DNA of 6,764 nt, taken from an uncultured Chromatiaceae bacterium. GTDB taxonomy: Bacteria > Pseudomonadota > Gammaproteobacteria > Enterobacterales > Alteromonadaceae. Location of the stretch: NCBI GenBank assembly GCA_946482615.1, contig CAMLSF010000182.1, positions 1 to 6,764 of the forward strand, read 5' to 3'. Under the pieces are notes generated by a model. The model did no database searches, had not been told where the DNA came from, and saw nothing but the letters and a program-made list of their open reading frames with translations. Each line of letters opens with the position of its first letter. Positions within the stretch are counted from its first letter, which is position 1. Positions 1 through 6,687 of the stretch are shown in pieces. A program made the position numbers and the translations under genes.

Positions 1-1082
1 GTAATGGGATAGACCGACAAACGATGATACAAGTCGGCGCGAAAATGACCTGCTGCCACTTCAGCAGCTAAATCTCTGTTGGTGGCGGCTATCACCCGCA
101 CATTCACCGTTTTTACGTCATCTTTGCCAACAGGCTGAATTTCGCCGCTTTGCAGCACCCGCAATAATTTACTTTGCACGCTCAGTGGCAGTTCTCCGAC
201 TTCATCGAGGAAGATAGTGCCGCCATCGGCCAGTAAAAATTTACCAGGTCTTTCCCGCTCGGCGCCGGTAAAAGCACCTTTGGCATGACCAAACAACTCA
301 GATTCAGCCAGGGTTTCAGGCAAAGATGCACAGTTTAAATGCACCAGTTGCCGTTTGGCTCTTCTGGATAACTGATGAACAGTGCGGGCGACCAGCTCTT
401 TACCCACACCAGTCTGGCCCTGAATCAGCACTGTGTAATCCGAACCCGCCACCAGTTGAATATCACTTTTTAGCGCCAGCATGGCCTGGCTTTGACCTAT
501 CAGCTCACCACCATCCCGGATCAGGGCTTCATGGGTCAGTTCTTCAACCAGATGTTGCGCCTGCAGCGCCTGTTGTTCGAGTTTTTTCAGCTGAATAGCG
601 GTTTTTAGGGTTGCTGCCGACATAGCCGCAATCAAGTCTAAGGTCCGTTCAGCTATCGCAGAAAAAGCATCAGGTTTCAGGCTGTCCAGCGTCAGCACTC
701 CTATCAGTTGACCATCTGAATACAAAGGTAAACCCATACAGGAATGCACGGGCAAATCACCGGCTTGCGCCAGCAACAAGCCATCGTAAGGATCGGCCAG
801 TTCAGTGTCGGATGGAAAACGCACCGGGCTGCTGCTTTGGCAAATGATCGCAAGGCGAGGGTGATCCTTCAGAGCGAAACGACGGCCTAAGGTATCAGCT
901 GTTAGGCCCTGGATGGCCAGCGGCATTAATAGCTCCCCCTGATAAGAGAGCAATACCACAGCATCGCAGTTAATAGCTTTACGCACAGAGCCCAGCAAAC
1001 GGTCAAAGCGATCTGTAGTAGTGATGCTGTTCGCCAGATCCAGCGCTACTTCCAGCAACAAGGTGGAGTTGAGTTCAGCCAT
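1..1082 (-). CDS. norR: NorR, NO-responsive sigma54-dependent transcription activator (partial, 3' end off the window)
   Basis: The first 360 codons plus two bases are present. The start is the ATG at 1082, with AGGAG (plus-strand 1088-1092) five bases upstream. Residues about 20-165 form the GAF sensor domain. Arg76, Asp97, Asp100, Cys115 and Asp133 line up with the five residues proposed to hold the mononuclear iron in E. coli NorR (R75, D96, D99, C113, D131), so NO sensing looks intact. The AAA+ domain starts near residue 193, with Walker A GQTGVGKE (222-229), the sigma54-contacting GAFTGA (269-274) and Walker B TIFLDE (289-294). Similarity to E. coli NorR is continuous, including FGHxKGAFTGA and FRADLxHRLSV. 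E. coli NorR is about 504 residues, so roughly 140 residues with the end of AAA+ and the Fis-type DNA-binding helix lie beyond the edge. It is divergent from the operon it probably activates. Confidence 0.95.
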
Positions 1083-1137: not shown

Positions 1138-1148
1138 GTCATTTTGAC
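1138..1148. promoter_or_regulatory. NorR enhancer site 1 (GT-N7-AC)
   Basis: GTCATTTTGAC is a near-perfect palindrome (GTCA-N3-TGAC) matching the GT-N7-AC core known for NorR sites. It lies about 110 bases upstream of the predicted sigma54 start, a normal distance for an enhancer-binding protein. The assignment rests on the motif, its twin at 1163-1173 and the adjacent norR gene. Confidence 0.8.
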
Positions 1149-1226: not shown

Positions 1227-1242
1227 TGGCATCAGAACTGCA
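1227..1242 (+). promoter_or_regulatory. sigma54 (-24/-12) promoter of the NO-defence operon
   Basis: TGGCAT-N5-CTGCA fits TGGCACRNNNNTTGCW: the invariant GG (1228-1229) and GC (1240-1241) have the required ten bases between them. The predicted start of transcription is near 1253, about 35 bases before the first gene. The NorR sites and IHF site upstream complete the standard arrangement. A sigma70 -10-like TATAAG (1246-1251) lies just downstream but has no convincing -35. Confidence 0.85.
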
Positions 1243-1287: not shown

Positions 1288-1560
1288 ATGATGTTTTATG
1301 TTGCCCAATTGTTTAGTAATGAAAAACTGTCCACCTCTGACAAATTCGAAGTCTTGTTGCTGGGTGCTAATACGTTATTAGCTTTGTCTTTTAGTGTACT
1401 GCTGGCCACAGTGCTGGTCTGTTATCCGCTGTCTTACCTGTTTTCGTTTGAGCTGCAACTGGCAGGGCATGTCACTATGATTTTCAGCGCAACTTTTGTG
1501 AAAATTGCCTATGTCTGCCGCTGTATAGCTCAGTACGAACTGCATAAAGAAGTACGTTAG
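1288..1560 (+). CDS. small two-helix membrane protein, first gene of the NO-defence operon
   Basis: This 90-residue protein is not one I can name. The start is placed at ATG 1288 or ATG 1291. AGGAG at 1280-1284 is three bases from the first and six from the second, which fits better. The frame extends upstream to a GTG at 1117, but that would put the NorR, IHF and sigma54 sites inside the gene and start before the predicted transcript. Residues about 22-46 and 57-77 are hydrophobic and likely membrane-spanning. The short N-terminal part and the basic C-terminus (RCIAQYELHKEVR) are probably both cytoplasmic. Histidine 61 and cysteines 45, 77 and 79 lie in or next to the helices. The stop is three bases before the GTG of nnrS, so the two are probably translationally coupled. 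It is likely an accessory to NnrS or an NO-stress membrane factor, which is inference from context only. Confidence 0.8.
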   Translation: MMFYVAQLFSNEKLSTSDKFEVLLLGANTLLALSFSVLLATVLVCYPLSYLFSFELQLAGHVTMIFSATFVKIAYVCRCIAQYELHKEVR

Positions 1561-1563
1561 GTT

Positions 1564-2811
1564 GTGAGTAAAAGAATGAGCCAGCGTCCTCCTTTGATCA
1601 ATATCCACTGGCCTGAACAGGCAGAGGCGGGTAAGCGCAAAGCTTTATCGGCTTATCCTTTGTTTGCTTTGGCATTCCGGCCTTTTTTTCTCTTTGGTGC
1701 TTGCTGGGCTTTTTTGGCAATCAGCATCTGGGCCTTGTGGTTTAGTGGCCTGATGTCGTTTCAGTTTGGTTTTCCTGCCACTTTGTGGCATGCCCATGAA
1801 ATGCTCTTTGGTTTTGGTGCTGTGGTCGCAGTCGGCTTTTTGCTGACGGCAGCACAAAACTGGACAGGCTTGCCAAGCATTTCGGGCAAACCCTTGCTGC
1901 TCCTAAGCAGCCTGTGGCTGACTGCCCGTTTTAGTTTGTTATTCGCCCACTACTCGCCGTTGTTGTGGCTATTTAGTGCGGCTCAGCTGCTGTGGTGGCT
2001 TGGTGCTATTTACAGCCTGGCGAGCTTACTCTTCAGGGCGAAAAGTAAAAACAACTATCTGTTTATTCCACTCTTGTCTGTGATGACTTTGCTGAATACG
2101 GCTTTTATTTACGCCGCTGCAACAGAGCAGTTTGCCTCGGCTTCGCATTTAAGTCACAGCATGATCCTGCTGTTTGGCATTTTGATGGGCATAGTAGGCG
2201 GACGGGTGATCCCATTTTTCACCGCCAGGGCATTAGGACTGGAGCAAATCAAAACGCCATTGCTGGATAAGTTGTTATTGCCGTTGTCCGTGTTTGGCAC
2301 TGTGTTGTTTATTACAGGTTTTTTTGTCCAGTTACCACTGAAAGCGGGCTGGTTGATGCTGCTGGTGGGGTTTTTACATCTGCTGCGTTTATCCTTCTGG
2401 ACGCCATGGAAAATCTGGGCAGCCCCTTTGCTGTGGTCTTTACAGCTGGCTTATCTGGCCTTGGCTTTAGGTTTAATTCTACTCGGCATCAGCGATTTAA
2501 CTCAGCTCCTTGTTTTTAAAGATGTGCTGCATCTGCTCAGTATCAGTGCTATGGCGGGTTTGATCCTCGCCATGATGGCACGGGTGTCTTTAGGTCATAC
2601 AGGCCGGCTACTGCAGGTTGGCAAAACTATCACTGTAGCTTTTGCTTTGCTGTTGCTGGCTGGCCCGGTGCGGATGCTGGCCAGCTTAGCAGGCTTTCCT
2701 TTGTTGTTCTGGCAGGCCAGCGCTGTGTTATGGCTCTGCGCCTTTGCAATTTTTATTCGGTTTTATTGGCCTGTTCTGACTCAGCCCCGGGCTGATGGCA
2801 GACCAGGTTGA
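1564..2811 (+). CDS. nnrS: NnrS family haem- and copper-containing membrane protein
   Basis: The product is 415 residues, close to the usual 400 for the family, very hydrophobic, with around a dozen probable membrane helices. Recognisable NnrS signatures are AYPLFALAFRPFFLFG (30-45), LWHAHEMLFGFG (74-85), GGRVIPFFTARALG (212-225), LH (322-323) and MARVSLGHTGR (338-348). His76, His78, His323 and His345 are candidate metal ligands. NnrS proteins sit in the inner membrane, belong to NO/NNR-type regulons in many proteobacteria, and in Vibrio cholerae protect against NO stress without removing NO. GTG 1564 follows the preceding stop by three bases. ATG 1576 (MSQRPP) is an equally reasonable start, and neither has a strong Shine-Dalgarno. 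It is placed between the small membrane protein and hmp in one apparent transcript. Confidence 0.93.
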   Translation: MSKRMSQRPPLINIHWPEQAEAGKRKALSAYPLFALAFRPFFLFGACWAFLAISIWALWFSGLMSFQFGFPATLWHAHEMLFGFGAVVAVGFLLTAAQNWTGLPSISGKPLLLLSSLWLTARFSLLFAHYSPLLWLFSAAQLLWWLGAIYSLASLLFRAKSKNNYLFIPLLSVMTLLNTAFIYAAATEQFASASHLSHSMILLFGILMGIVGGRVIPFFTARALGLEQIKTPLLDKLLLPLSVFGTVLFITGFFVQLPLKAGWLMLLVGFLHLLRLSFWTPWKIWAAPLLWSLQLAYLALALGLILLGISDLTQLLVFKDVLHLLSISAMAGLILAMMARVSLGHTGRLLQVGKTITVAFALLLLAGPVRMLASLAGFPLLFWQASAVLWLCAFAIFIRFYWPVLTQPRADGRPG

Positions 2812-2862: not shown

Positions 2863-4056
2863 ATGTTATCTGCTCAAACTATTGCCATCGTAAAAAGCAC
2901 TGTGCCCTTGCTGGAAGGGGCAGGTGTGGCTATCACTAACCATTTTTATCAGCGTATGTTTCAGGTCAATCCTGAGCTGAAAGATATTTTTAATATGACC
3001 AACCAGCACAGTGGCCGTCAGCAGTTTGCCTTGTTTAGTGCTATTGCGGCTTATGCCAAAAATATCGATAACCTGTCTGTACTGACTGAAACAGTGGAGC
3101 GGGTGGCGCATAAACACACCAGCTTTTTTATTCAGCCTGAGCACTACGACATAGTGGGTCATCACCTGATTGAAACTTTACGTGAACTGGCGCCGGATGC
3201 CTTTACACCAGAGGTAGAACAAGCCTGGACAGAAGCTTATGGCGTGCTGGCGAATATTTTTACCGGTCGTGAGCGTCAGCTGTATAACCAGACCGAACAA
3301 AAACCGGGTGGCTGGTATGGCCCACGTCGTTTTATCGTCAAAGAAAAAATCCGTGAATCTGAGCTGGTCTCCAGCTTTGTATTGGTACCCAAAGATGGTG
3401 AAGCTGTGGTGGATTACCTGCCGGGCCAGTATCTGGGAGTGAAAGTCAAACCTGCCCATTGTGACTACTATGAAATCCGTCAGTATTCTTTGTCTGACAA
3501 AGCCAATGGCCACAGCTACCGCATCAGTGTGAAACGTGAAAATGGCGAAGTGGCAGGTCTGGTCTCCAATTACCTGCACGACCATATTCAGGCCGGAGAT
3601 GAGCTGGATATTCTGCCGCCAGCCGGTGACTTCTTCCTGCAATCGGCCCATTTACCTACAGTGCTGATCTCCGCTGGTGTAGGTTTAACTCCTATGCTGT
3701 CGATGCTGGAAAGCATAGTGGCGTTAAAGCAGCAAACCCAGGTGTTTTTCCTGCACGCCTGCGAAAGTCCACAGCAGCATTCTTTCGCACAGCGTATTTC
3801 GCAACTGGAACAAGACTACCCATTACTGCACAACTTTACCTGGTACAACAAAGCAGAGCAGAACACAGCGGCCGGTCAGTTTGCTGGTTTGATGGATCTG
3901 AAAGCCGTCGCCAATGAGTTACCGCTGCAAAGTGCCAATTTCTACCTCTGTGGTCCTACAGGTTTTATGAAGTTTGCCAAAGATCAGTTATTGGCTTTGG
4001 GTGTGGCTTCGGCACAAATTCACTATGAAGTTTTTGGTCCTCACAGCGAGCTGTAA
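2863..4056 (+). CDS. hmp: flavohaemoglobin, nitric oxide dioxygenase (EC 1.14.12.17)
   Basis: This cytoplasmic enzyme converts NO, O2 and NAD(P)H to nitrate. Its 397 residues compare with 396 in E. coli Hmp. The globin domain (about 1-138) keeps Tyr29 (B10), Phe43 (CD1), Gln53 (E7), the proximal His85 (F8) and Tyr95, and Glu137 aligns with E. coli Glu135, shifted by a two-residue insertion. The FAD domain (about 152-260) has PGQY (187-190) and RQYSL (206-210). The NAD domain has AGVGLTPML (271-279), YLCGPTGFM (361-369) and the C-terminal FGPH (391-394). AGAGG-like sequence at 2851-2855, seven bases before the ATG, is a good ribosome binding site. The 51-base gap after nnrS holds no convincing promoter or NsrR site, so transcription from the NorR-controlled promoter is most likely. 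Confidence 0.97.
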   Translation: MLSAQTIAIVKSTVPLLEGAGVAITNHFYQRMFQVNPELKDIFNMTNQHSGRQQFALFSAIAAYAKNIDNLSVLTETVERVAHKHTSFFIQPEHYDIVGHHLIETLRELAPDAFTPEVEQAWTEAYGVLANIFTGRERQLYNQTEQKPGGWYGPRRFIVKEKIRESELVSSFVLVPKDGEAVVDYLPGQYLGVKVKPAHCDYYEIRQYSLSDKANGHSYRISVKRENGEVAGLVSNYLHDHIQAGDELDILPPAGDFFLQSAHLPTVLISAGVGLTPMLSMLESIVALKQQTQVFFLHACESPQQHSFAQRISQLEQDYPLLHNFTWYNKAEQNTAAGQFAGLMDLKAVANELPLQSANFYLCGPTGFMKFAKDQLLALGVASAQIHYEVFGPHSEL

Positions 4057-4064
4057 TGGCAAAG

Positions 4065-4087
4065 AGGTCCGGCGTTTTGCCGGGCCT
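4065..4087 (+). other. stable hairpin between hmp and the chemoreceptor-like gene
   Basis: AGGTCCGGC (4065-4073) pairs over nine positions, one a G-U wobble, with GCCGGGCCT (4079-4087) around a GTTTT loop. It begins eight bases after the hmp stop. The following bases (GATTCACC) are not a T-run, so it is not a standard intrinsic terminator. It may protect the hmp mRNA 3' end, cause partial read-through or mark an RNA processing point. Confidence 0.5.
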
Positions 4088-4121: not shown

Positions 4122-5237
4122 ATGTGGAGCCTGGTACGCAGCGTAAAGTTGCAACAAACCGAACTGAAGCAGCGGGATATGGAGCAACAACTACAGCAGT
4201 TGCTCGAACAGAATCAGCAGCTTCAACATCAATTAGCCGCCAGGGATCTGCAGCTTAAAACCATCACTCAACAGCTGGAGAGCACGGCCAAAGCCGCCAC
4301 AGAGCTTGGGCAATTTGAGCAAAGTTTAATGCATATGGAGCACAGCATGCTGCGGCTCTCTGATGATTTAAAGCAGCAGCAACTTCGATCTACTGATGCC
4401 CGTGAGCTGGCGGTACAAGGGGGCAGGCAGATGCTGCAGTCGTACGAGCAACTGAAATCATTGCGGCAACAAAGTGATAACAGCTTGCGGACTCTGCACA
4501 AACTAAAAAGCGAAACTAAGGTCATTTCAGGCGTCGTTGAATTGATCCGGGCTGTGTCTGAGCAAACCAATTTATTATCGCTGAATGCTGCAATAGAAGC
4601 GGCAAGAGCAGGTGAACATGGCCGGGGTTTTGCCGTGGTGGCCGATGAAGTCCGCAAACTGGCGCTGAAAACTACAGCTGCAACCAGCGAGATCAGTGGT
4701 TCTATTCACAGCATCTTATCTGAAGTGGATGAAGTCAGCTTACATGTGACCAGCATGGACGATGAACTGCTGAAGTTGTCAGACCTATTTACTGAGACCG
4801 CAGAGGCGAGCGGCCATATCAGCCGGAATTGTATTAGTGCAGAGCAAAGCAGCACCTACTCCGCCATAGTATTTGCGGTGGAACTGGCCAATCTGCAGGA
4901 ACTGGTGATGAAAATGATGGTGTATCGCACCTTATTAGGCGGTGCCAGCTTTCAGTCCAATGACTTACCAGACGAACACCAATGCCGGCTCGGTGCTTTA
5001 TACGGGCAATTACCCACACAACAGCCTATGACCAAAGGCTCGGTCTACCAACAGATTGAAGCGCCACACGAAGCCGTGCATCAACAAGCCAAACTGACTC
5101 TGGACTATTACCATCAGGGGCGCTGGCCAGAAACCTTACACAGCCTGAGCCAAATGGAACAAGCCAATTTAAAGGTGATGCAACTGATGCAGCAATTATT
5201 GGCGGAAATGGATTTAGGGCAGGCAGCAAGAGCTTAA
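4122..5237 (+). CDS. soluble methyl-accepting chemotaxis-like protein with C-terminal CZB zinc-binding domain
   Basis: The protein has 371 residues, with AAGGGGG (4111-4117) four bases before the ATG. Residues about 8-60 are a Gln-rich coiled coil. There is no signal peptide, membrane helix, PAS or Cache domain, so it should be cytoplasmic. Residues about 60-245 form a short chemoreceptor hairpin whose tip is near consensus: [20 protein letters not shown] (146-165) followed by [16 protein letters not shown]. CheA/CheW contacts therefore look intact; there is no NWETF-type CheR tether. Residues about 250-365 resemble the chemoreceptor zinc-binding (CZB) domain: MVYRTLLGG (266-274), CRLG (288-291) and PHEAVH (315-320), with Cys288, His316 and His320 as ligands. 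The usual first ligand His is Glu260 (LQELVMK) and two typical Trp are Met263 and Leu293. Known CZB proteins (TlpD, DgcZ) respond to zinc or oxidants. Its place after hmp suggests NorR control and NO-linked signalling, which is inference. Confidence 0.85.
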
Positions 5238-5271: not shown

Positions 5272-5619
5272 TTACTGCGGCTTTTGCTCTGTAATTTCTG
5301 CCCGTTCAGCATGGCTTGCTCCCCAATCTCTCATCAATATCAGCAGTGGTGTCAGGGTTTTACCATAGTCAGTCAGGGAATATTCAACATGAGGGGGGAC
5401 AAGATCCAGTACCTCTCTGTGAATCACGCCGTCATCGACCAGCTCTTTTAATTGCATGGTCAACATTCGCTGTGTAATGCCATTAATCATTCGCTTCAGG
5501 GCATTAAATCTGCATTTTTCATTTTCCAACAGATTGAACAAGATGATTGGTTTCCATCGGCCGCCAATCACCTTGAGTGTTGTGGTCACAGAGCAGCCAA
5601 ATGGTTCATCGTAGTTCAT
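5272..5619 (-). CDS. HxlR-family (DUF24) winged-helix redox-type transcription regulator
   Basis: The product is 115 residues from ATG 5619. A TTG at 5646 would add nine residues, but it lies upstream of the start predicted from the TATACT -10 box, so ATG is preferred. The HxlR pattern is clear: CSVTTTLKVIGGRWKPIIL (from Cys9), recognition region FNALKRMINGITQRMLTMQL, and wing plus end PPHVEYSLTDYGKTL. Cys9 is at the position of the single redox-sensing Cys of members such as YodB and QorR; a second Cys (36) follows the first helix pair. Family members are dimeric repressors that respond to quinones, aldehydes or disulfide stress. It is divergent from an MDR quinone reductase-like gene, the same pairing as qorR-qor2 in Corynebacterium, so that gene is its likely target. 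It converges on the chemoreceptor-like gene with only 34 bases between, in which I see no clear terminator. Confidence 0.9.
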   Translation of the reverse strand: MNYDEPFGCSVTTTLKVIGGRWKPIILFNLLENEKCRFNALKRMINGITQRMLTMQLKELVDDGVIHREVLDLVPPHVEYSLTDYGKTLTPLLILMRDWGASHAERAEITEQKPQ

Positions 5620-5637
5620 AAGATCGTCACTTTTTGC

Positions 5638-5655
5638 AGTATACAAAATGATACT
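5638..5655. promoter_or_regulatory. probable HxlR operator overlapping the regulator's -10 box
   Basis: AGTAT (5638-5642) and ATACT (5651-5655) form an inverted repeat separated by eight AT-rich bases. The minus-strand TATACT (5643-5638) is a five-of-six match to a -10 box for the regulator gene, with only a weak -35 (TTTTGT) 17 bases upstream. TACAAAAT at 5642-5649 recurs at 5660-5667, 18 bases later, so there may be a second binding unit towards the oxidoreductase. HxlR proteins typically bind such short AT-rich inverted repeats. The oxidoreductase promoter is not clear; GATATA (5696-5701) is a candidate -10. Confidence 0.45.
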
Positions 5656-5733: not shown

Positions 5734-6687
5734 ATGAAAGCTGTAGTCATTGAACAATTTGGCGCTTCCAATCTGATGAAGCTGGTAGAGCTACCCACCC
5801 CTGTTCCGGCGGACGATGAAGTTCTGGTCAGAGTAAAAGCGGCCTCTGTGAACCCTGTGGATATACAAACCAGAAGGGGAGACTACAAAAGTAGTGTCGC
5901 CTTACCGGCAAGGTTGGGTGTTGATTGTGCTGGTATCATTGAGAAAGTGGGGAAAGAGGTCCGGGGCCTTGCCGTAGGGGATGAAGTGTTTTATGTGCCG
6001 CGATTGCTTGAAAACGAAGGCAGTTATGCCACGCATCATGTTGAGAAAGCATCCATAGTGGCAAAGAAACCTAAAACTATTTCTTTTGAACAAGCTGCTA
6101 CCTTGCCTTTAGCCGCCGGTACTGCATGGGAATGCCTGATGGAAAGGGGACGCTTAAAGTCTGGTGATAAAGTGCTGATCCACGGTGGTGCGGGAGGTGT
6201 TGGTGTTTATGCAATCCAGATCGCAAAGTTTTTTGGTGCCCATGTGGTTACTACAGCTGGTCTGCACAATAAAGACTTTGTCGAAATGCTGGGAGCGGAT
6301 GTCAGTTATGATTACCGAAATGAGTCATTGTATGAAGAGCTTCGTCAGGACTATGCCTCAGGTTTTGACATTATCCTGGATACAGTAGGTCAGAAAACCA
6401 TAGAAAATAGTCTTTCCTTACTGGCGAACTCTGGCAGGTTAGTGTCCATTGTCGATATGTCCGAACCGCAAAACCTGATCAGTGGCTGGCAGGTCAATGC
6501 AGAGATCCATTTTGTTTTTACCACTCAGTCTGCACAGCGACTGACCGAATTAGCCAAAGTGGTCGACGCAGGTGGTATCAAACCTATTATTGAACGTGTG
6601 ATGAAGTTAAGCGAGATAGTAGCAGCTCATGATCTTATCGAGACGGGAAACCGAAAAGGTAAGATTGCACTCTCAGTCGATGAATGA
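5734..6687 (+). CDS. NADP-dependent quinone oxidoreductase-like MDR enzyme (zinc-free)
   Basis: This 317-residue cytoplasmic enzyme belongs to the medium-chain dehydrogenase/reductase superfamily, quinone oxidoreductase/zeta-crystallin branch. GGAGA (5724-5728) lies just before the ATG. The N-terminal GroES-like domain contains VKAASVNPVDIQTRRGDY (34-51) and LGVDCAGIIEKVG (61-73). The Rossmann fold has the dinucleotide-binding GGAGGVGVYAIQIAK (151-165), followed by GADVSYDY (187-194) and FDIILDTVG (211-219). The catalytic and structural zinc Cys/His ligands of alcohol dehydrogenases are absent, as expected for this branch. It probably reduces quinones, enals or related electrophiles with NADPH; the exact substrate cannot be read from sequence. 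The divergent HxlR regulator suggests induction by the electrophile it detoxifies. No terminator is visible before the tRNA. Confidence 0.9.
   Translation: MKAVVIEQFGASNLMKLVELPTPVPADDEVLVRVKAASVNPVDIQTRRGDYKSSVALPARLGVDCAGIIEKVGKEVRGLAVGDEVFYVPRLLENEGSYATHHVEKASIVAKKPKTISFEQAATLPLAAGTAWECLMERGRLKSGDKVLIHGGAGGVGVYAIQIAKFFGAHVVTTAGLHNKDFVEMLGADVSYDYRNESLYEELRQDYASGFDIILDTVGQKTIENSLSLLANSGRLVSIVDMSEPQNLISGWQVNAEIHFVFTTQSAQRLTELAKVVDAGGIKPIIERVMKLSEIVAAHDLIETGNRKGKIALSVDE

What the first reader, a model, noticed from the sequence alone, without database searches (positions are those of the whole stretch)
4122..5237. Soluble chemoreceptor-like CZB protein as the last gene of a NorR-controlled NO-defence operon
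Seen: an intact receptor signalling tip, no membrane segment, and a CZB domain, co-directional with and 65 bases behind hmp, with no obvious promoter of its own. Known: CZB domains bind zinc through Cys and His, and the zinc-thiolate in TlpD-type receptors reacts with oxidants such as HOCl. Inference: a zinc-thiolate is also a plausible NO target, so this protein could report NO or nitrosative stress to a chemosensory array, coupling detoxification with movement or biofilm decisions. I know of no described system of this composition.
Basis: partly seen in the sequence, partly recalled or inferred. Interest (0 to 1): 0.75.

Follow-up and report, generated by a model that had tools for sequence, protein, structure and literature searches.

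The report
NO-operon chemoreceptor with altered zinc site
A soluble bacterial chemoreceptor sits in a nitric-oxide defence operon and belongs to a group of such receptors, often placed beside nitric-oxide genes, in which one of the four zinc-binding residues has been swapped, so it probably lets swimming cells respond to nitric oxide or the stress it causes.

Summary
Window 4122-5237 encodes a 371-aa soluble MCP+CZB protein, 65 nt behind hmp, in an operon (small membrane ORF, nnrS, hmp, czb) divergent from norR, with two NorR-type sites and a sigma-54 element upstream. First, the CZB domain is not standard: the first zinc-ligand His (DgcZ H22) is Glu260, while Cys288, His316 and His320 remain. 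Proteins with this change form one clade, 99/95 support with the ligand columns removed. Second, the clade is repeatedly found in NO loci. An NO marker (nnrS, norR, nsrR, ytfE, norB, norD, hmp) lies within 9 kb in 44 of 83 loci, against 2 of 53 other CZB loci; thinned, 28 of 53 against 1 of 30. In 19 of 83 the marker is on the same strand within 250 nt, with four different partner genes. NorR-type sites plus sigma-54 elements recur between norR and ytfE-czb in four loci. Exceptions: 39 of 83 clade loci are unlinked, and two His-type CZB genes outside the count lie beside nnrS. That the protein senses NO itself is inference.

The parts
3..1082 (-). norR (C-terminal part cut off by the window), divergent NO-responsive sigma-54 activator
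   Evidence: NCBIfam NF003451 NorR 550.6 bits over a cut-off of 476; GAF + Sigma54_activat
1138..1148 (+). NorR-type site GTCATTTTGAC
   Evidence: exact GTCANNNTGAC match; same site order in three further Rheinheimera-type loci, L002, L003, L148
1163..1173 (+). second NorR-type site GTCATTATGAC, 25 bp from the first
1227..1242 (+). sigma-54 (-24/-12) element TGGCATCAGAACTGCA
   Evidence: exact pattern match; the pattern with one mismatch is as common as chance, but the same element recurs at the same place in L002, L003, L148
1288..1560 (+). small 90-aa hydrophobic ORF, first gene of the operon
   Evidence: no Pfam/NCBIfam family; 28 homologues, none with a Pfam domain; hydropathy
1564..2811 (+). 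nnrS
   Evidence: Pfam NnrS E 1.1e-94
2863..4056 (+). hmp, NO dioxygenase (flavohaemoprotein)
   Evidence: NCBIfam NF009805 559.8 bits over a cut-off of 432
4065..4087 (+). 9-bp stem, 5-nt loop hairpin in the hmp-czb gap, no T run
   Evidence: not more stable than shuffles (z -1.3)
4122..5237 (+). soluble CZB chemoreceptor with Glu replacing the first zinc-ligand His
4392..4832 (+). MCP signalling domain (residues 91-237), hairpin tip motif from residue 147
   Evidence: Pfam E 1.8e-32; tip position
4899..4901 (+). codon of Glu260, at the place of DgcZ His22 (and, by motif, TlpD His315)
   Evidence: alignments
4983..4985 (+). codon of Cys288, retained metal-ligand Cys
5067..5081 (+). codons of His316 to His320, retained metal-ligand His pair

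Best explanation
The gene encodes an NO-inducible cytoplasmic chemoreceptor. Inferred from sequence: NO activates NorR, and sigma-54 polymerase transcribes the small ORF, nnrS, hmp and czb. Shown: the protein has an MCP signalling tip and a CZB domain from a distinct clade in which the first metal-ligand His is Glu260, with Cys288/His316/His320 kept; the clade is enriched beside NO genes. Inferred: the remodelled metal-thiolate site reacts with NO or its products (S-nitrosation of Cys288 or metal loss). This changes the helix register between CZB and tip, as described for zinc disruption in TlpD, and so changes CheA activity, letting cells that are already detoxifying NO bias their swimming or another chemosensory output.
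For: NorR-type sites and sigma-54 element in the window. NorR-type sites (GGTN7ACC) 25 bp apart plus sigma-54 elements between norR and ytfE-czb in L009, L022, L025 and L043. Within 9 kb of an NO marker: 44 of 83 clade loci against 2 of 53 other CZB loci, p 2.5e-10; only loci with at least 12 kb of flank, 39 of 71 against 2 of 43; 44/83 against 4/55 if the two His-type counterexamples outside the count are added, p 7.9e-9; thinned 28 of 53 against 1 of 30. In 19 of 83 a marker is on the same strand within 250 nt: ytfE 7, nsrR 5, hmp 4, nnrS 3. In the class sample (29 of 105 listed places fetched) two clade members were both linked, 0 of 19 His-type and 0 of 7 unassigned were. Single clade, 99/95 without the ligand columns. 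CheA in 25 of 25 genomes. TlpD: loss of the H315-zinc bond accompanies shifts that reach the kinase interface (PMC12871147, section 9 read, passages of section 10); H315 is, by motif, the residue replaced here.
Against: 39 of 83 clade loci have none of the seven markers within 9 kb, including all 13 Pseudomonas, all four Vogesella and both Azospira loci. In the genus of L002 the gene is optional: 4 of 10 hmp-bearing genomes have it. A His-type CZB gene stands beside nnrS in G105, and a His-type CheW-CZB-like frame near nnrS in G012. No direct evidence of NO or metal chemistry. NorR-type sites immediately upstream of czb genes are, if anything, rarer than in His-type controls (12 of 82 against 13 of 36 at one mismatch), so the NorR argument rests on operon leaders. 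L032, L033 and L047 showed no NorR-type sites in the scanned 450 nt, L188 had sites but no sigma-54 element, and in L006 and L011 the NorR-type promoter points away from czb.
Confidence: 0.5

Rival explanations
1. NO is only the inducer. The receptor senses zinc availability, oxidants, oxygen or redox state, as proposed for Salmonella McpA, and steers NO-exposed or denitrifying cells toward better electron acceptors or away from stress. The Glu substitution merely tunes metal affinity.
For: McpA is reported to respond to Zn2+ depletion, ROS and O2 (PMC13370339, abstract and passages). Clade members also recur beside anaerobic genes ubiT, ubiU/V, hemN, narX/narL and nrdD. Half of the clade is not NO-linked.
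Against: His-type CZB receptors, which that model also covers, are hardly NO-linked (1 of 36), although 23 of 27 class-sample CZB genomes tested (not all typed) carry nnrS.
Confidence: 0.3
2. The site has become a mononuclear non-haem iron centre (His316/His320/Glu260 facial triad plus Cys288) that binds NO directly, in the manner of the iron centre of NorR (recalled).
For: Glu260, Cys288, His316 and His320 are all present in 54 of 54 thinned clade rows (Glu260 and Asn257 by definition of the class), with coordinated changes K257N, D259E/Q and S349N. Two His plus one carboxylate is the classical ligand set for NO-binding ferrous sites (recalled).
Against: No metal data; a CZB site with Glu could still bind zinc; no solved structure of the domain was found by sequence, and no model coordinates were available to check geometry.
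Confidence: 0.12
3. The gene is a passenger: NO loci tolerate insertions, and the receptor has no NO-related role.
For: Patchy presence in the genus of L002, 4 of 10 hmp-bearing genomes; partner genes differ between lineages.
Against: Different NO partners in different lineages, with the same receptor clade each time, is what selection for the association predicts; linkage far exceeds that of other CZB genes.
Confidence: 0.08

Closest known systems
TlpD-like soluble CZB chemoreceptors (Helicobacter TlpD, Salmonella McpA)
   Same: Soluble MCP with C-terminal CZB, signalling tip, Cys and the two-His motif of the metal site
   Different: First zinc His (H315 in TlpD, PMC12871147 section 9) is Glu260; no PAS domain found; NorR-type operon with nnrS and hmp. 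In the papers opened those receptors are tied to HOCl, ROS and zinc
E. coli DgcZ CZB
   Same: Aligns at C52, H79 and H83
   Different: H22 is Glu260 here; output is a receptor tip, not a diguanylate cyclase
NorR regulon (norVW, hmp, nnrS, ytfE operons; gene list partly recalled)
   Same: Divergent norR, paired NorR-type sites, sigma-54 element
   Different: Carries a chemoreceptor; the 2005 comparative reconstruction of nitrogen-oxide regulons has no hit for chemotaxis, methyl-accepting, mcp or chemoreceptor in its main text (PMC1274295, term search only)
Haem-based NO sensors with signalling modules (H-NOX with MCP, abstract of PMC9814294 in listing; sCache_heme, abstract of PMC12889525)
   Same: Proposed to link NO or related gases to signalling outputs
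   Different: Those use haem; this protein has no haem domain in Pfam and a CZB metal-thiolate site

Membership tests
Pfam CZB (PF13682) | Profile score over the curated cut-off | tested here: met
   41.6 bits against 29.4
Pfam CZB (PF13682) | 3His/1Cys zinc motif, described as ubiquitous (PMC8262984, section 11) | tested here: not met
   First His is Glu260; Cys288, His316 and His320 kept
TlpD-like soluble CZB chemoreceptors | Soluble MCP with C-terminal CZB | tested here: met
TlpD-like soluble CZB chemoreceptors | HOCl or zinc response through the zinc Cys | not testable with these tools
   Cys288 is present; no chemistry possible
Chemotaxis receptor (MCP) | Signalling domain, and CheA in the genome | tested here: met
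   MCPsignal E 1.8e-32; CheA in 25 of 25 clade genomes tested, chosen partly for NO linkage. The window's own genome is not held, so CheA there is untested
NorR regulon | NorR sites and sigma-54 promoter upstream of the operon | tested here: met
   (sequence only)
NorR regulon | NO-dependent, NorR-dependent transcription reaching the gene | not testable with these tools
   No expression data; no terminator or sigma-70-like site listed in the gap
Non-haem iron NO sensor | Bound ferrous iron that forms an iron-nitrosyl | not testable with these tools
   Only the ligand set is suggestive

The most novel reading that the evidence does not exclude
A whole proteobacterial clade of chemoreceptors has converted the CZB zinc switch into an NO sensor. 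Replacing the first zinc His by Glu turned a 3His/1Cys zinc site into a 2His/1Glu/1Cys site that holds ferrous iron (or a much more reactive zinc thiolate) and binds NO directly. NorR- or NsrR-controlled expression beside the detoxifying enzymes arms the receptor only when NO is present: a haem-free NO taxis system.
Probability: 0.15. Interest if true: 0.9.

Novelty: new variant of a known kind. Interest (0 to 1): 0.72.

Why it matters
In the papers opened, CZB receptors are discussed as sensors of HOCl, ROS or zinc. A clade with a changed metal ligand, spread over many proteobacterial genera and repeatedly placed in NO loci, gives a concrete candidate for a haem-free receptor that links NO detoxification to swimming. 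It makes two questions testable: whether bacteria perform NO taxis through a cytoplasmic receptor, and what the first zinc ligand does in CZB signalling, since nature has already exchanged the ligand that lets go of zinc in the TlpD zinc-disrupted state.

Tried and rejected
Direct NorR or DNR sites immediately upstream of czb genes: no enrichment; NorR-type matches were rarer than in His-type controls and DNR-type matches 1 of 82 against 1 of 36. The sites are at operon leaders instead. A terminator between hmp and czb: a conserved hairpin exists but has no T run and is not more stable than shuffles. Fold comparison of the AF2 model (mean pLDDT 88.2, pTM 0.63) returned chemoreceptor coiled coils at the top, then unrelated long helical proteins at poor E-values that I disregard; it added nothing on the metal site, and no coordinates were available. 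A profile of the domain found no PDB sequence. A possible CZB remnant behind hmp in L201 (31 aa, E 8e-4) was not reproduced in the wider region L207 and is treated as chance. Ten neighbour genes at nine unlinked loci showed no common theme: six matched no Pfam family, one at L018 is a Crp-type regulator. Co-occurrence is uninformative: nnrS is in 24 of 25 clade genomes (a set chosen partly for linkage) but also in 23 of 27 other CZB genomes and 4 of 11 genomes without CZB that I picked from the class sample. The first, quick tree had long branches and included the ligand columns; one search replaces it.

From the class search I fetched 29 of 105 listed places, chosen by frame length of about 370-550 aa and not exhaustively; G105 (569 aa), later found beside nnrS, fell outside. 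Glu-type was defined by Asn257 plus Glu260, so their invariance within the class is by definition; among anchors with letters at both columns no mixed type occurred. The 80 main loci come from a motif search whose first pattern itself contains the Glu; they were not chosen by neighbourhood. The marker profiles were built from genes around these 80 loci, and the control set has a different origin (same genomes, genus, class sample), so the comparison is not perfectly matched.

Full report
WHAT IS THERE. The window holds a norR gene on the minus strand (3-1082, cut by the window edge) and, divergent from it, a small hydrophobic ORF (1288-1560), nnrS (1564-2811), hmp (2863-4056) and the gene in question (4122-5237). 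The protein has 371 residues, an MCP signalling domain (E 1.8e-32) and a CZB domain (41.6 bits, cut-off 29.4), and no evident membrane segment. AlphaFold2 with 72 sequences gives a long helical receptor body plus a C-terminal helical domain, mean pLDDT 88.2. Two exact GTCANNNTGAC sites 25 bp apart (1138, 1163) and a sigma-54 element (1227-1242) precede the operon. The same order of sites stands at L002, L003 and L148. In the 65-nt gap behind hmp the scan lists neither a sigma-70-like site nor an intrinsic terminator.

WHICH ORGANISM. No genome is held for the window. The closest loci are L001 (an unnamed gammaproteobacterial MAG), L002 (Rheinheimera faecalis) and L003 (Rheinheimera sp. MAG), with 86-88% DNA identity over the stretch shared.

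THE METAL SITE IS CHANGED. In an alignment with E. coli DgcZ, its C52, H79 and H83 match Cys288, His316 and His320, but H22 matches Glu260. The TlpD preprint names H315, C340, H368 and H372 as ligands (PMC12871147, section 9); the spacing of the His pair is the same, and H315 corresponds to Glu260 by motif (the TlpD sequence itself was not aligned). All 12 homologues chosen for alignment A2 share Glu260. The Pfam CZB match starts only at residue 264, after the first ligand. The 2021 survey calls the 3His/1Cys motif ubiquitous (PMC8262984, section 11 read), and a review says 3 histidines and 1 cysteine are conserved among CZB domains (PMC8846402, passage).

ONE CLADE. Sorted by residue, CZB genes fall into Glu-type (Asn257 + Glu260), His-type and a few degenerate or unassigned ones, with no mixed case among anchors with letters at both columns. 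A tree of 84 thinned rows, with residues 250-266 left out, puts the 54 Glu-type rows on one side of a branch (99/95, 100% of 200 bootstrap trees). Compared with nine His-type rows from the same larger branch, the change is coordinated: K257N, D259E/Q, H260E, S349N. The window and L001 sit on a long stem inside the clade (2.09 changes per column, placement 90/55), so which branch they come from is unsure.

NO LINKAGE. Clustering the neighbour genes of the 80 loci, without a prior list, gives NnrS as the commonest family (16 loci); NorR (10), an NsrR-like Rrf2 regulator (10) and YtfE (9) follow, among other clusters such as LysR-type (14), a GGDEF/EAL-like family (12) and NarL (11) (LysR and GGDEF/EAL named by eye; others). 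The NsrR model is matched below its curated cut-off, and the NnrS cluster is named by its overlap with the window's NnrS hits. With profile searches for seven NO markers, 44 of 83 Glu-type loci (80 + L148, L185, L188) have one within 9 kb, against 2 of 53 other CZB loci (36 His, 14 unassigned, 3 Tyr). Within 2 kb the figures are 40 of 83 and 1 of 53; with at least 12 kb of flank read, 39 of 71 and 2 of 43. Thinned at 82% identity: 28 of 53 against 1 of 30 His-type. Without the four Rheinheimera-type rows and without the ambiguous NorB marker: 40 of 79 against 1 of 53. The class sample (29 of 105 places, chosen by frame length) held two Glu-type loci, both linked, and 19 His-type plus 7 unassigned, none linked.

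OPERON-LIKE ORDER. In 19 of 83 loci the marker is on the same strand within 250 nt: ytfE (7), nsrR (5), hmp (4), nnrS (3). The ytfE-czb loci include Halomonas, Billgrantia and Modicisalibacter (titles). Between the divergent norR and ytfE-czb of L009, L022, L025 and L043 stand GGTN7ACC sites 25 bp apart and a sigma-54 element about 50 bp on. In L006 and L011 such a promoter lies beside norR but points away from czb. L032, L033 and L047 gave no NorR-type sites in the scanned stretch (L032 may be a start-site error, since its norR ORF is overlong), and L188 had sites without a sigma-54 match. Among 198 ORFs of the same loci, which were not cleared of the norR ORFs themselves, 9 had at least one GTCAN3TGAC site and 30 a sigma-54 match upstream, so single matches mean little; the repeated arrangement is what counts.

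WITHIN THE GENUS. Of 22 genomes in the genus of L002, 10 have hmp; 4 of these carry the Glu-type gene directly behind hmp, and none of the 12 without hmp has a Glu-type gene (Fisher 0.029). In five of the six others norR, nnrS and hmp are present in the same order and no CZB gene follows hmp (the sixth contig, L212, is too short to judge). The receptor is therefore an optional addition.

RESULTS AGAINST. 39 of 83 Glu-type loci have no marker within 9 kb, among them all 13 Pseudomonas, all four Vogesella and both Azospira loci. A His-type CZB gene stands upstream of nnrS in G105, and a His-type CheW-CZB-like frame near nnrS in G012 (L146, dropped by my profile). Adding both to the control gives 4 of 55, still far from 44 of 83 (p 7.9e-9). 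The two control positives in the count are L138 (a COX1-family hit that may not be NorB) and L144 (NorB- and NorD-like). Sites directly upstream of czb are not enriched. nnrS itself is common in CZB genomes, so it is the position, not the co-occurrence, that marks this clade.

MECHANISM. Shown: operon position, sites, clade, linkage, residue change, CheA in all 25 clade genomes tested (this set was picked partly because of NO linkage). From the literature: zinc-bound TlpD is thought to be kinase-ON and apo TlpD kinase-OFF, and loss of the H315-zinc bond comes with shifts that reach the kinase interface (PMC12871147); McpA is proposed to read Zn2+ as a messenger of redox state (PMC13370339, abstract and passages). 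Inferred: a Glu at the labile ligand either makes the Cys thiolate more reactive or changes the metal, so that NO or its products alter occupancy and signalling. An iron-based NO site is possible but without direct evidence.

LITERATURE SEARCHED. CZB domain (16 papers), NorR/nnrS/chemotaxis protein, nitric oxide/chemoreceptor/NnrS, NsrR regulon/methyl-accepting chemotaxis, nitric oxide/chemotaxis/denitrif/chemoreceptor/zinc, TlpD/CZB/zinc/His, chemotaxis/nitric oxide/NosP/H-NOX (20 of 67 listed), CZB/nitric oxide/chemorecept, norR/ytfE/methyl-accepting and Rheinheimera/chemotaxis/nitric oxide. In the listings and the passages opened I saw no description of a CZB receptor in an NO operon or of a Glu-type CZB clade. 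The main texts of PMC8262984, PMC13370339, PMC6715182 and PMC12871147 have no occurrence of nitric oxide; the one nitrosative hit in PMC13370339 is a reference title. The one paper found with norR, ytfE and methyl-accepting (PMC10256816, passages) reports NO genes up and two MCP genes down with tomato exudates; the passages seen do not link them. The library is open-access only; the founding CZB paper (PMC3165512) is not held.

VERDICT. Observation confirmed, interpretation partly supported and strengthened by comparative evidence. The finding is a new variant of a known kind: a chemoreceptor clade, often in NO loci, with an altered CZB metal site. What it senses is open.

Noticed in passing
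window 1288-1560: A conserved 90-aa hydrophobic ORF opens the operon; it has no Pfam or NCBIfam family and 28 homologues without any Pfam domain, found in most of the hmp loci fetched from the genus (not in L198/L201/L207), with a weak relative in Marinobacter L063. A candidate new member of NO-defence operons.
   Followed up: partly
window 4065-4087: Hairpin in the hmp-czb gap largely conserved in five Rheinheimera-type sequences but with no T run; could set the hmp:czb ratio.
   Followed up: partly
L111-L135: Other genomes of the genus carry tandem CZB receptors: a His-type gene beside a degenerate one with Tyr at the first ligand and Ser, Gln, Lys or a gap at the Cys column.
   Followed up: no
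L045, L049, L056, L058, L061, L063, L065 (Marinobacter): Glu-type CZB genes lie among narX/narL, ubiT, ubiU/V and hemN, i.e. anaerobic respiration genes.
   Followed up: partly
L213:1381-4579: A His-type CZB receptor frame directly upstream of nnrS, near a moaA-like ORF (moaA by eye, not searched).
   Followed up: partly
L146:9554-10510: A His-type CheW-CZB-like frame near nnrS in an Azospira genome (G012; CheW by eye, not searched).
   Followed up: partly
window 4122-4160: The N-terminus begins M-W or M-F in most homologues aligned; a possible localisation or interaction motif.
   Followed up: no
window 5272-5646 and 5734-6687: Divergent HxlR regulator and zinc-type quinone oxidoreductase downstream; this segment has no DNA match in L002, L003 or L148, and in L003 the flanks lie next to each other.
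   Followed up: no
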